Assembly (NCBI GenBank): GCA_000333855.2
Contig: CM007315.1
Span: forward strand, 62,001-126,000
Length of the DNA: 64,000 bases
Reading direction: 5' to 3'
Source of the DNA: Endotrypanum monterogeii
Taxonomy: Eukaryota > Euglenozoa > Kinetoplastea > Trypanosomatida > Trypanosomatidae
Each line of letters opens with the position of its first letter. Positions within the stretch are counted from its first letter, which is position 1. A model generated the notes under the pieces. It saw only the letters and a list, made by a program, of their open reading frames with translations. It made no database searches and was not told the origin of the DNA. This document shows, in pieces, positions 14,501 through 22,642 of the stretch. The translations under genes and the position numbers were made by a program.

Positions 14501-17500
14501 TCAGAGATGACAGAGCTCATCTAGCTTCTCAATTACTGTGTCGATGCGATCGCACGTCATACCCCCCAGATTACAAGGAATAAACTGTGTGGAGGCAGTA
14601 CGCAAGTACCAGGTAGAAAAGGCGCTTTGCATCGCCTGCACCGAGAGCATGCGCTGCGCCATGGTCTTCGCGCTGTGCTTTAGGTCAAACTTGGAGAGAA
14701 CAACGGGAGGGCCGGAGAAAACGATGCTGCGCACATTTTTATGAGCCCGCAGCCCAATCACCGCTGCCTGACTTCCCACAGGGCCGTGTCCAACGACATA
14801 AATGTTTTCGCGATCGCCACGTAGGCCCGCTACGATATGGCGCATGATGACAGTGGTGTTCTCAACGAACTTCTTCCACCGTAACGGGGTCATTCCTTCA
14901 ATAAACCTCAAATAGGGCAGCACGAGGTCAACGTATGGCGCAGGCATAAGAAAGGAGAAGATGGAAAGCACGTACGTGTCGATCCACATGGTCATGGACT
15001 CGATCAGAGCAATGAGGTCACTTCCGGGACGTGCCGTTACGATGGTGGTGTTGACAGTAGCTTCCTCTTCGCGGAAAGCGTTGATATGTATGAAAGCTGA
15101 ACTGCCCACTTGTGGAACTGACACGCGCCTAAAAGAAGGAAACCAGCGGCCGAGATCCACGTCCTGCGCCACCGCATCTTCGTTGAGCCCCAACTTCGCG
15201 AAGAGGGCAATGCCCACCATATCAAGTGTCGGGCTGAACTGTGCCGGGCACAAGAGGGGCATCGCATAAAACGGTTCACTTGACTCCCTCGGAGAGGGAA
15301 GCACCGCTACGTCACTAGCATACGATTGTGCAGATGACTGATTTGTGGTTGTCGGGCGTCGCGACATGACAGCTGGACTGAAGCGGCTTGCGTAGTCGGG
15401 CAGAAGGTGCTCACTGACCGTGCCCTCATAAACGTCAAGGATGCTGAGGTTGCCGATCAAGCAGCAGGTCAGCAAAGTCAGTGTGAAGCTTGCAGACATG
15501 GTGAAGAGGCCCAGGTTGCTCGACGACCCGTTCGTGCGCACAACACACAGCACCAGGTGCACCGCCAGCACCATCACAAGTATCCCGAAGCGGTAGTTCA
15601 AGACAGTGAGGGCAATCGTACAACCGAGCAGGTGAAGCAGAAGGAGCATCCACGAAACTCGAAAAAGCCACCGGCGCACCGAACCTCTCCACGGGCCGTA
15701 CACGGTCACCAGTCCGGTAACCACAAAAAACACCATTATAAAAATTGCCGCGAGCGTCACGCCACTCCAGTCTCCTTTCCACCTTTGCGGTGAGAGAGAG
15801 AAAAGAGTGTGCATCCAAAAGATGGACGCATAAAAGACGCAGCAGATAACGATATGAGACGAGGAACCCACATGGCGCGCGCCTATAAAGACGGTACAAA
15901 GCAAAAGCAGCACCGACTGCACGACGATGGCGGCACATAAAAAAACAAATCCGCCGCCGACGAGAAAGGCAAGGCCCATAGACACCGACAACACCCCGGT
16001 CATTGTGAGGAGGATCAGCTCTGTGGGGGGGCAGCGCCCTTTGATGTGATCTTCACCCATCTCGACTTCCATGAGGAAGTACAGAGTCGCCTCAGCATTG
16101 TTCTGACGACTTCCGTGGACGTACGAACGCTTGCTCAGTGATCGCAGACCCAAAGCGAAGATCAAGTGATAGGTGAAAATGATGCACACAGCGACAAACC
16201 AGCCGTATGCTAGACTGTACTGCAGCCCAGCCAAGACATCATAGCGAGTGGCCATGACGCAGAAGACAACGAAACATGCGATGGTGCACAGGGCGCTGAT
16301 CACCAACTGGATGACCAGAGCCTTGTTACCGAACACCCTGAACGCCTGCAAGACACGCCCCTGGAATGTTTTCCGGGCCACGTCAAAGCCATGAGAGGTA
16401 AAAATAGTGAATTGGCCCGCCACAACGATAAAAGCTGCGCCGTAGGGGAATACGTTATACGGAATCACAAACATGGCGAAAAAAATGTGCGTGAGCGTTA
16501 TGACACCCAGGAGAACGATAACACAGGTGCCGATGAAAAAAAAAAAGGCGTTGACCATGAGACAAAGCCACAGTAATCCTTTTGTCATCAAAAGTAGAGA
16601 GGGCGGCAGACCGGAAAGGAGTCTGTCGCTTTTGATCACACTCCACTCCTGCTCCAGGGTGCGCCGATCTTTTATCTCCAGCTGTGCGATTTGCAGCCAC
16701 TCCCGCTCGTAGATCTCTTCGAGGCTGATACGAAAAAAAGACTCGATCGTCATAAACTGAGTGATGTAATCTGTGAGAAGGTCCCGCCTCGGCGATAACG
16801 GTGGTGGAGTGCTGTTTAACTGCGCCAGACCTTGAGACCAGGAGGCGCCCATCTCTAAACTGTCTGTTCCGAATGTGATCAGGTTGGCGTCATCGTCGAT
16901 GTCAAAGGCGTGGTGGGGAGATATATGATGGGCAGCAGATGGTACAACGGCGCTGTCGTCGGTACTCAATGACCCATACCTGCCTATCCTAAGCGAGCTG
17001 CTGAGTGGCTTTTCATGCTGGGAGGCTGAGGACTCGATGATGCTGTTCCTCAGCGCAGCCATTGCGGAGCGGCCATCGAGATAGCCTGCACTGCGGAGGT
17101 TGTTCAGCTCCCACTCCTTCACACCTTCACCCCGGAGAATGGCCTCTTTGAGCTGCTGGAAGTAGTCCCGTATGACAATGGCAAAACGATCGAAATTCTC
17201 TTGATGATCACAGTCGTTCTCCCCACCCAAAGCGAGCGGGAGCACGTCAGCGTCGAAGTACTCCAGTAGCTTCCCGTTGCGGATGTCGCTGTCGGAGATG
17301 ATCTTGATGCGATCCGAAACGATGGCTGGCAGTCGCGAGAAGATCGGCTTTGCCAGCGCAGCGAGAAAACGACCCATCTTGCACACATAAATCTTGTCGA
17401 CACAGCCAGGGTAGAACTTGGCGATGCGCAATGCGATGTCCGCCTGGAGAGTCATGTCAAGATTCGTCATCATGCTGGCCTTATCTTGATTGATGAGCAT

Positions 17501-22200: not shown

Positions 22201-22642
22201 CTTCCTGGTTGATGAGCATGACCATCTGGCAGCGCTTGTTCTCCTTTCGGAGACGCATGCCGTAGCTGACAAACATATCGAATGAGCGGCGCTGCTCTTC
22301 GCGGTACTTTGCCTGCGGTTGATCGCGCTTTGTGTTGACGAAAAAAGCCACACGCCCCGCCTTGTCGTTGCCGAGTTCCATAATAATGCCCTTACGCAGC
22401 GACTCTCGCATGTAGTCTGTCAGCTCGTACGAGGCAAGCTCATTCACCTCCATCGCGAAGCGCCGATGCAGTTTTTCGACCGTCTCATTGACATTGAATT
22501 TTTTGTTCTCAAGAAATCCGTAGATCCAGGCGTCGAAGTAGCCGTGTTTGATGTCCAAACATCGCTTCACCTCATCCACCTCCCCACGGTGGGAAATGGC
22601 CACAGTGCCCAGGTCGCTCAAAGATGTGTAGGTGGACGACAT
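19229..22642 (-). CDS. CRAL/TRIO domain, polytopic membrane and lipase-like protein (copy 2)
   Basis: A 1137-aa paralogue of the preceding gene with the same architecture. The N-terminus has EVDEVKRCLDIKHGYFDAWIYG and the Sec14-like domain spans about residues 70-260, ending in LPVALGG. A polar linker leads to about 12 hydrophobic segments between residues ~440 and ~860. The C-terminal lipase-like region has a TVFVLRNRY strand and IIVTGSGVPGG with IVFSSPG. As in copy 1, Gly falls where the Ser nucleophile of GxSxG would be (codons 19538-19546), although the alignment has a one-residue ambiguity. The two copies are about the same length but clearly diverged, so the duplication is old. The ATG at 22642 lies 72 nt from a candidate splice AG (22715/22714) behind a polypyrimidine tract at 22740-22770. 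Confidence 0.8.
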   Translation of the reverse strand: MSSTYTSLSDLGTVAISHRGEVDEVKRCLDIKHGYFDAWIYGFLENKKFNVNETVEKLHRRFAMEVNELASYELTDYMRESLRKGIIMELGNDKAGRVAFFVNTKRDQPQAKYREEQRRSFDMFVSYGMRLRKENKRCQMVMLINQEGASLFKNVDMTFQADIALRISKYYPGGVDKMYICKMSRTLAAMAKPIFKRLPSIVADRIQIIDETDIKQGVLLDLFDEEVLPVALGGKNMSDNEEGWCAYADRVEKHFADMKRAIIERGLTVKEYELECIGIDARSLQERSDGRGTATATSHTEKLAQSVRSFPAQPPSPEPSHHSTPRDTMWPKARGASQVVSQHFVDASPTLDPDLKSLNTCFTEMSSLQSPGNRSGVYEETAEGPTISWAGVVAPLPESLALFFLDELLRWRVAVESSESSERYKILDAFVSGLKTTTELGVRGLDVSDRKWYVGIPYPLRALYRTFLLAITVLNVIYFLAALVFCTVFCANIIITTFFGFFVNPSQVFPLSAVLLMVAIQGASLCTRAADCILAVYNRNVIPPFERLGSYWGAIAEVVLFFFLLITQFIIFCVYAARDNPLRGLQVSFVTGWLSALFVVVFMHVFFFTGLLASPATRGTDNRLAALPFFLAFNFGNSSKEQQREIDARFMLRTSSYVICGIPLLISMLFGVAFLISRIVSLYVATFVISLIAAYVVHYYSEALSNTLSGSLLRFTLWMMVLAWCYVTFVFGFRDYSNSYGASVIVVVTINAAMVLMALTCLRRPSQSRLLRVSYLVVIGYVLGCWLSLFPLVSWHIGLFCLALMVHNALSIIFAPGTLTGIHASFFLVVAVMLLGISCVLLGWYGTTLITTTAQSLPSVSPAPTTLSNLELYHRYPVCTLQMGNDNSLRVLDIALMNEIVGARTVDVFNADFNNWFGTRSVTYNGIAREFRQGGASWEMHEFVLPATADTTVFVLRNRYATSSIMSMVNWVDAIALSPLSIFMPYDWVDTVVFTMSFVSRLIPFPERTIVNDIKDFLLLRKSQSQTNIIVTGSGVPGGVLSAAAAQTMTHAIVFSSPGLLHCAHKLGVLYDDYHRYVLSIGAYYGVLNYVGGQDSTISQRVQCRGSTLYCIRPQFFSGALLEACGDADGRRHIPSK

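What the first reader, a model, noticed from the sequence alone, without database searches (positions are those of the whole stretch)
14501..22642. CRAL/TRIO plus polytopic membrane plus lipase-like domain without nucleophile
Both large proteins join a Sec14-like lipid-binding domain, about 12 membrane segments and a C-terminal region that follows the class-3 lipase order (FRGT-like strand, GHSLGG-like elbow, FGSPR-like strand). In both, Gly replaces the Ser of GxSxG (14783-14791 and 19538-19546). Such a chain could pick up a lipid, bind it in a pseudo-enzyme pocket and act in or on a membrane: a transporter or sensor, not a hydrolase. I know of no described system with this layout.
Basis: inference. 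Interest (0 to 1): 0.75.

Follow-up and report, generated by a model that had tools for sequence, protein, structure and literature searches.

The report
Membrane lipid-binding protein with dead lipase
Two neighbouring genes of a trypanosome-like parasite each encode a membrane protein that joins a lipid-carrying type of domain to a lipase-like domain whose cutting residue has been replaced, a design shared by its relatives that looks suited to hold or pass on a lipid rather than to cut it.

Summary
No Pfam lipase model hits either protein, but a C-terminal profile of the 48-member family matches a class-3 lipase profile at score 51.5 (84.5 for the eight members outside the two window clades); 23 unrelated families reach at most 22.6 and 21.1. 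The window clades alone score 40.3 and 30.7. The nucleophile is Gly in 44 of 48 members; exceptions are 2 Arg, 1 Asp (Bodo saltans) and 1 Ser. So this is an old, family-wide pseudo-hydrolase, not local decay. Four Cys are invariant in 48 of 48, which suggests a lumenal side (inference). Two near-invariant histidines lie in the membrane part. Function is untested; most likely a lipid-binding transfer or sensing protein that spans a membrane.

The parts
14501..17920 (-). Gene 1 (protein P0001, 1139 aa from the ATG at 17920)
   Evidence: ORF; ATG and length; ortholog P0032 of 1139 aa
17723..17893 (-). Gene 1 DUF7353 (aligns with the helical N-part of a Sec14-type protein)
   Evidence: Pfam 2.3e-29; N-terminal profile aligned to Sfh1/YKL091C
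17222..17677 (-). Gene 1 CRAL/TRIO (Sec14-like) domain
   Evidence: Pfam 1.3e-12, 48.3 bits
15455..16588 (-). Gene 1 polytopic membrane region (about 12 hydrophobic segments), with intramembrane His585 and His788
   Evidence: hydropathy; conserved columns
14504..15283 (-). Gene 1 C-terminal class-3-lipase-like domain
   Evidence: hhalign of its 20-member clade to the first lipase profile, score 40.3 over domain columns 9-201, null maximum 23.8; second profile 29.0
14783..14791 (-). Gene 1 nucleophile elbow, Gly-His-Gly in place of Gly-x-Ser
   Evidence: Gly 20 of 20 in its clade
19229..22642 (-). Gene 2 (protein P0002, 1137 aa)
   Evidence: ORF; ortholog P0003, 78% identical over 100%
22439..22618 (-). 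Gene 2 DUF7353
   Evidence: Pfam 7e-31
21941..22396 (-). Gene 2 CRAL/TRIO (Sec14-like) domain
   Evidence: Pfam 5.4e-13, 49.5 bits
20117..21256 (-). Gene 2 polytopic membrane region, with intramembrane His604 and His807
   Evidence: 12 family-averaged peaks; His 47 and 46 of 48
19232..20041 (-). Gene 2 C-terminal class-3-lipase-like domain
   Evidence: hhalign of its 20-member clade to the two lipase profiles, scores 30.7 and 33.2, null maximum 21.5
19538..19546 (-). Gene 2 nucleophile elbow, Gly-Ser-Gly, nucleophile position Gly1035
   Evidence: Gly 20 of 20 in its clade
19358..19360 (-). Asp1095, kept in 20 of 20 of the P0002 clade
19244..19246 (-). His1133, kept in 19 of 20 of the P0002 clade
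44757..47723 (-). Third paralog of the N-terminal module: DUF7353 + CRAL/TRIO, no other Pfam domain at E up to 0.01
   Evidence: Pfam 3.4e-24 and 6e-12; own-genome search

Best explanation
The two genes encode members of a kinetoplastid family of membrane proteins that handle a lipid or other lipophilic ligand. A cytosolic Sec14-like domain picks the ligand up or senses it; a polytopic core sits in the membrane; a lipase-derived domain on the far (lumenal or outer) side, which has lost its nucleophile, holds a ligand without cutting it. Shown at sequence level: the domain order, the class-3 lipase kinship of the last domain, the near family-wide lack of the catalytic Ser, the invariant Cys, and conservation of the three folded parts. 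Inferred: the sidedness, lipid binding, and the role as a transfer or sensing device. The two paralogs may have split roles, since Asp1095 and His1133 are kept in the P0002 clade and absent from the P0001 clade.
For: CRAL_TRIO above cut-off in both; the N-terminal profile of the three window paralogs finds Sfh1/YKL091C and Sec14 structures first, E 0.0012 and 0.008. C-terminal domain: hhalign to the first class-3 lipase profile scores 51.5 (48 rows) and 84.5 (the 8 rows outside the two window clades), controls at most 22.6 and 21.1; the membrane and N-terminal parts score at most 17.5 against the same lipases; 9 of 12 PDB profile hits are lipases or PAD4, E 0.13-1; 24 of 24 bacterial yardstick rows are Lipase_3 by Pfam at E up to 0.001. 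Nucleophile Gly in 44 of 48, three changes on the tree. Four Cys 48 of 48, and N-glycosylation sequons in 45 of 48 C-terminal domains. N-part most conserved (mean consensus 0.717 against 0.475 membrane and 0.428 C-terminal).
Against: No binding, transport or localisation data exist here. The best single PDB hit of the family profile is not a lipase (VPH2, E 0.063) and several of the lipase hits look like variants of one enzyme. Gene 1's own C-terminal piece matches Hydrolase_4, not Lipase_3, and only at E 0.13. P0002 has no sequon in its C-terminal domain. Twelve passes taken at face value would put both ends on one side; the lumenal reading needs an odd number, and loop 5, one of the loops I take as cytosolic, carries more acidic than basic residues. 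The lysine of Sfh1's LPVKYGG stretch is Ala or Glu in 41 of 48, so canonical phosphatidylinositol binding is doubtful, though four other CRAL/TRIO frames of this genome also lack it. No structure model could be made.
Confidence: 0.5

Rival explanations
1. The membrane core is the working part (a lipid or acyl chemistry or transport centre built on its two near-invariant intramembrane histidines), and the lipase-like domain is an extracytoplasmic docking or receptor module.
For: His604 47 of 48 and His807 46 of 48, inside hydrophobic segments; Arg528 47 of 48, Trp724 48 of 48. The C-terminal domain is the least conserved of the three folded parts.
Against: No Pfam match of either window protein to a transporter or membrane enzyme at E up to 10, no meaningful NCBIfam match; in the PDB the membrane part has two weak hits, an assembly factor (E 0.063) and an FtsH-like protein (E 0.98). 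Some relatives have lone weak Pfam hits in this part that I take as chance.
Confidence: 0.25
2. It is still an enzyme: the P0002 clade uses Asp1095 and His1133 with an unusual nucleophile or water, or acts as an acyltransferase on the lumenal side.
For: Asp1095 20 of 20 and His1133 19 of 20 in the P0002 clade; a residue His also aligns at 1133 in 5 of the 8 rows outside the two clades. One relative, P0026, has an intact Gly-His-Ser-Met-Gly-Gly elbow.
Against: Gly at the nucleophile in 40 of 40 of the two clades; in the P0001 clade position 1095 is not Asp in the residues listed (Thr 9, Ser 5, Gly 3, Gln 1, Ala 1) and position 1133 is a gap in 20 of 20; identity of these residues with the lipase triad is not established. 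P0026 is sister to two Gly-bearing rows.
Confidence: 0.15
3. The C-terminal region is not an alpha/beta hydrolase; the elbow is a chance glycine-rich match.
For: No Pfam lipase model hits either window protein at E up to 10; the best relative is below the Pfam cut-off (19.6 against 22 bits).
Against: Profile scores are about 1.3 to 4 times the best control, depending on the set and lipase profile, with strand, elbow and next strand colinear in the eight outer rows.
Confidence: 0.06
4. Decaying gene copies whose lipase part is degenerating in this lineage.
For: Loss of the nucleophile.
Against: Open frames of conserved length; 69-75% identity of the C-terminal domain to Porcisia; no Ser in 47 of 48 family members.
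Confidence: 0.02

Closest known systems
Sec14 / CRAL-TRIO lipid transfer proteins (Sec14p, Sfh1/YKL091C)
   Same: CRAL/TRIO domain with the preceding helical part
   Different: Known ones are mostly soluble (recalled); here the domain is fused to a polytopic core and a lipase-like domain. The lysine of Sfh1's LPVKYGG stretch is Ala or Glu in 41 of 48.
Class-3 lipases (Pfam Lipase_3; PDB entries named Lipase and Diacylglycerol lipase)
   Same: Order and profile similarity of strand, nucleophile elbow and next strand
   Different: No nucleophile Ser; below the Pfam cut-off; joined to CRAL/TRIO and membrane segments.
PAD4 / EDS1 plant lipase-like proteins
   Same: Lipase-like domain used without hydrolysis (recalled); PAD4 is among the PDB profile hits, E 0.24
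   Different: Soluble plant immune proteins, no CRAL/TRIO, no membrane part (recalled).
Long class-3 lipases with membrane segments in the same genome (L024, L025; DAG-lipase-like by recall)
   Same: Membrane segments plus a class-3 lipase domain
   Different: Intact GHSLGG elbow; 6 and 5 segments seen in frames that are cut by the fetched stretch; none of the 12 CRAL/TRIO places of this genome lies there
Neuroligins and dipteran yolk proteins (recalled, not tested)
   Same: Hydrolase folds that lost the catalytic serine and serve in binding
   Different: Other hydrolase families, other architectures

Membership tests
CRAL/TRIO (Sec14-like) | CRAL_TRIO profile above the curated cut-off | tested here: met
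   48.3 and 49.5 bits against 22.6
CRAL/TRIO (Sec14-like) | Helical N-terminal part before the lipid-binding lobe | tested here: met
   Profile of three window paralogs aligns with Sfh1 from chain residue 48 on, E 0.0012 for the whole match; Pfam calls this part DUF7353
CRAL/TRIO (Sec14-like) | Lysine of the LPVK(F/Y)GG stretch used for phosphatidylinositol (role recalled) | tested here: not met
   Aligned column: Ala 31, Glu 10, then Thr, Asp, Pro 2 each; one of 48 rows not listed. Four other CRAL/TRIO frames of this genome, of those that matched the motif, have Phe or Glu there
CRAL/TRIO (Sec14-like) | Binds and exchanges a lipid | not testable with these tools
   needs protein
Class-3 lipase (Lipase_3) | Pfam Lipase_3 above cut-off | tested here: not met
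   no match at E up to 10 for either; 4 of 38 rows match weakly, best 19.6 bits against 22
Class-3 lipase (Lipase_3) | Profile kinship of the domain | tested here: met
   scores 51.5/55.6 all 48 rows, 84.5/78.1 for 8 outer rows; 23 controls at most 22.6 and 21.1
Class-3 lipase (Lipase_3) | Nucleophile Ser in GxSxG | tested here: not met
   Gly in both; no GxSxG in either protein
Class-3 lipase (Lipase_3) | Catalytic Asp and His | tested here: inconclusive
   Asp1095 and His1133 conserved in the P0002 clade; alignment to the lipase triad not secured
Class-3 lipase (Lipase_3) | Alpha/beta-hydrolase fold by structure | not testable with these tools
   structure prediction switched off
DAG lipase (polytopic) | Membrane segments with an active class-3 lipase domain | tested here: not met
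   no nucleophile
EDS1/PAD4 family | Lipase-like domain followed by the EP domain | not tested
   PAD4 found only as a weak profile hit

The most novel reading that the evidence does not exclude
A single-chain lipid relay across a membrane: the cytosolic Sec14-like domain loads a lipid into a polytopic core with an intramembrane histidine pair, which hands it to a lumenal pseudo-lipase that keeps it as a receiver or sensor. It would be a kinetoplastid-specific kind of lipid transporter in which a dead enzyme serves as the acceptor.
Probability: 0.2. Interest if true: 0.8.

Novelty: new variant of a known kind. Interest (0 to 1): 0.55.

Why it matters
It adds an architecture that the paper searches did not turn up (open-licence library, capped lists): a lipid-transfer type domain, a polytopic core and a class-3 lipase-like domain without nucleophile in one chain, present in trypanosomatids and in Bodo saltans. 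If it moves or senses lipids across a membrane, it would be a lipid-handling device not yet described in this group, and a case in which an enzyme fold was kept for binding throughout a major eukaryote lineage.

Tried and rejected
A profile of 38 rows gave no Sec14 hit in the PDB at E up to 10, while the N-part alone did. Search for relatives of the membrane plus C-terminal part lacking CRAL/TRIO: 3 proteins at E up to 10, all with CRAL/TRIO, one new, from Bodo saltans; only 7995 candidates were scored, and searches were capped in the same way (7991 and 7997), so absence elsewhere is not shown. Literature: the L. donovani Sec14 survey PMC10341546 (abstract, passages, figure legends) lists 14 Sec14 homologs and its main text does not hold the word transmembrane; T. 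brucei Tb927.7.3150 in PMC3694164 (passages and one section) is a CRAL-TRIO protein without reproducible RNAi effect, its relation to these genes not tested; TcCRAL/TRIO in PMC12834515 (passages and one section), 183 aa, is reported to bind heme and is another protein; PMC9683477 and PMC12005674 (passages) concern a protein that cannot be tied to these and that same 183 aa gene. Two papers were seen in the listing only and not used. Rejected: pseudogene decay and chance motif, for the reasons under rivals.

Caveats on the controls: 79 of 80 bacterial loci gave a frame with the motif, 29 were non-redundant; 24 of the 29 went into the two profiles by eye, 5 were left out (L104, L040, L065, L088, L047). 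First profile: 14 bacterial and 3 own-genome lipases; second: 10 bacterial. All 24 match Lipase_3 at E up to 0.001, L039 just below the cut-off. The lipases were collected by an exact elbow motif, so that side is selected. The 23 control families exclude GHSLGG-bearing proteins; I did not check them for other alpha/beta-hydrolase families, so class 3 against other hydrolase families rests, where Hydrolase_4 also matches 4 of 38 rows (best E 0.017 against 0.00089 for Lipase_3). Rows dropped before the 48-row counts: P0017, P0021, P0022, P0024. Of these, two reach the elbow and read Gly there, two stop before the domain. P0039 was also left out of the first alignment of 46 rows. The tree is a quick one.
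Full report
What is there. The window is part of a genome of 30.7 Mb in 44 contigs. The best hits of the two proteins are trypanosomatid; the nearest named ones are from Porcisia hertigi, 78% identical for P0002 and 72-73% for P0001. Two genes lie head to tail on the minus strand. The one at 19229-22642 encodes P0002, 1137 aa. The other was listed as 14501-18106 from a GTG; the ATG at 17920 gives 1139 aa, matching its Porcisia ortholog. Both carry DUF7353 and CRAL_TRIO above the Pfam cut-offs, and no other Pfam family at E up to 10.

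The N-terminal part. A profile of the three window paralogs, the third being the gene at 44757-47723 that has DUF7353 and CRAL/TRIO and no other Pfam domain, finds Sfh1/YKL091C (E 0.0012) and Sec14 (E 0.008) among solved structures, and the alignment to Sfh1 starts in its N-part. So DUF7353 probably is a divergent CRAL/TRIO N-part (inference). The lysine of Sfh1's LPVKYGG stretch is Ala in 31 and Glu in 10 of 48 family members; that this lysine serves phosphatidylinositol binding is recalled. The control is not in favour of reading much into it: four other CRAL/TRIO frames of this genome that show the motif have Phe or Glu there too. The N-part is the best conserved of the chain, mean consensus 0.717; between P0001 and P0002 it is 56.5% identical, against 20-22% in the membrane and C-terminal parts.

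The membrane part. Averaged over 48 members there are 12 hydrophobic peaks between P0002 residues 463 and 842. Eight single proteins give 10 to 13 peaks over their whole length by a similar measure. Basic residues concentrate in loops 3, 5 and 9, but loop 5 has still more acidic ones. The first 40-residue stretch lacks turn-forming residues in its middle (mean 0.08, against 0.33 and 0.34 for two other such stretches). If it counts as one pass, the core has 11 passes with the N-terminus inside and the C-terminus outside. This is inference; with 12 passes both ends would lie on one side. His604 and His807 (P0001 His585 and His788) are kept in 47 and 46 of 48 inside hydrophobic segments.

The C-terminal part. 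Direct Pfam search does not call it a lipase; gene 1's C-terminal piece alone matches Hydrolase_4 at E 0.13, below cut-off; each whole protein alone has one PDB match at E about 0.5, for P0002 a CRAL-TRIO protein. At profile level a lipase signal appears. Against PDB chains, 9 of 12 hits at E up to 10 are lipases or PAD4, at the elbow region, each weak (E 0.13 to 1), several of them apparently variants of one enzyme, and the very best hit is an unrelated one to the membrane part (E 0.063). Pfam Lipase_3 matches 4 of 38 rows, best E 0.00089 and below the cut-off; Hydrolase_4 also matches 4 of 38, best 0.017. hhalign against two class-3 lipase profiles (17 and 10 sequences) gives 51.5 and 55.6 for 48 rows, 48.7 and 52.8 without P0026, 84.5 and 78.1 for the eight rows outside the two window clades, 44.4 and 45.7 for the two clades together, 40.3 and 29.0 for the P0001 clade and 30.7 and 33.2 for the P0002 clade. 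The best of 23 unrelated families reaches 17.9 to 23.8 depending on the set; 20 column shuffles per set reach at most 20.5 and reversed profiles at most 18.1. In an earlier run the membrane and N-terminal parts scored at most 17.5 against the same lipases. All 24 bacterial lipase rows are Lipase_3 by Pfam. So the domain is a divergent class-3-lipase-like alpha/beta hydrolase at profile level; each window clade alone would be only suggestive.

The missing nucleophile. Among 48 family members the nucleophile position is Gly in 44, Arg in 2, Asp in 1 (Bodo saltans P0052) and Ser in 1 (P0026). In the two window clades it is Gly in 40 of 40. Of four partial rows left out of the 48, two reach the elbow and read Gly. 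Three changes suffice on the tree. The Ser-bearing row is sister to two Gly-bearing rows, so either it regained Ser or it kept it while others lost it; the count favours the first. Neither window protein has GxSxG anywhere. Asp1095 (20 of 20) and His1133 (19 of 20) are kept in the P0002 clade; in the P0001 clade the His position is a gap in 20 of 20 and Asp is not among the residues listed. I could not show that they are the lipase Asp and His. Four cysteines (P0002 879, 1104, 1111, 1125) are invariant in 48 of 48, and 45 of 48 C-terminal domains have at least one N-glycosylation sequon; P0002 and two others have none. This favours a lumenal or outer position (inference).

Spread and history. 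Searches found 37, 27 and 3 proteins in overlapping, capped sets. Those with organism names are trypanosomatids or Bodo saltans; many come from unnamed sources. The tree has a P0001 clade and a P0002 clade, 20 rows each with SH-aLRT 100, and eight rows outside them, rooted on Bodo; it is a quick tree. By consecutive locus tags the two paralogs are neighbours in Porcisia, Leptomonas pyrrhocoris, Leptomonas seymouri and Trypanosoma conorhini, so the tandem pair is old. In the own genome P0001 finds itself, P0002, the N-part of the third gene and one weak place on another contig, E 1e-6; DUF7353 occurs in three places, all in this window, and CRAL_TRIO in 12.

How it most likely works. Shown at sequence level: the domain order, the lipase kinship, the lack of the nucleophile, and conservation. 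Inferred: a Sec14-like domain in the cytosol binds a lipid or other hydrophobic ligand; the membrane core connects the two sides; the dead lipase domain outside binds without cutting. Whether it moves lipid, senses it, or anchors partners is open, and the histidine pair makes the membrane core itself a serious candidate for the working part.

Known or new. Database names call these 'CRAL/TRIO domain containing protein', 'transmembrane protein, putative' or 'hypothetical'. The papers that I opened do not describe the membrane or lipase part, and the searches listed none that does (open-licence library, capped lists). I rate it a new variant of a known kind.

Noticed in passing
window 44757-47723 (-): A third paralog with DUF7353 and CRAL/TRIO and no other Pfam domain at E up to 0.01; the N-terminal module also occurs without the lipase-like part in the same window.
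   Followed up: partly
window 25447-43120 (-): Four amino-acid-transporter-like genes in tandem; three of them share long identical stretches inside otherwise different proteins, which looks like gene conversion (by eye; only the first was scanned with Pfam).
   Followed up: no
window 58852-63963 (-): Two calpain-like genes side by side near the window end.
   Followed up: no
P0026 (relative of the two proteins): The only one of 48 family members with an intact Gly-His-Ser-Met-Gly-Gly elbow; it is sister to two Gly-bearing rows.
   Followed up: partly
L024 and L025 (own genome, contig C36): Two long class-3 lipase frames with membrane segments and intact GHSLGG, about 13 kb apart; DAG-lipase-like by recall.
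   Followed up: no
L001 and L002 (own genome, contig C31): Two class-3 lipase frames of the same length (500) about 3.2 kb apart with nearly equal scores, probably a recent tandem duplication.
   Followed up: no
DUF7353 in the family: Pfam's DUF7353 lies where the N-terminal profile aligns with the N-part of Sfh1 and is probably a divergent CRAL/TRIO N-domain.
   Followed up: partly
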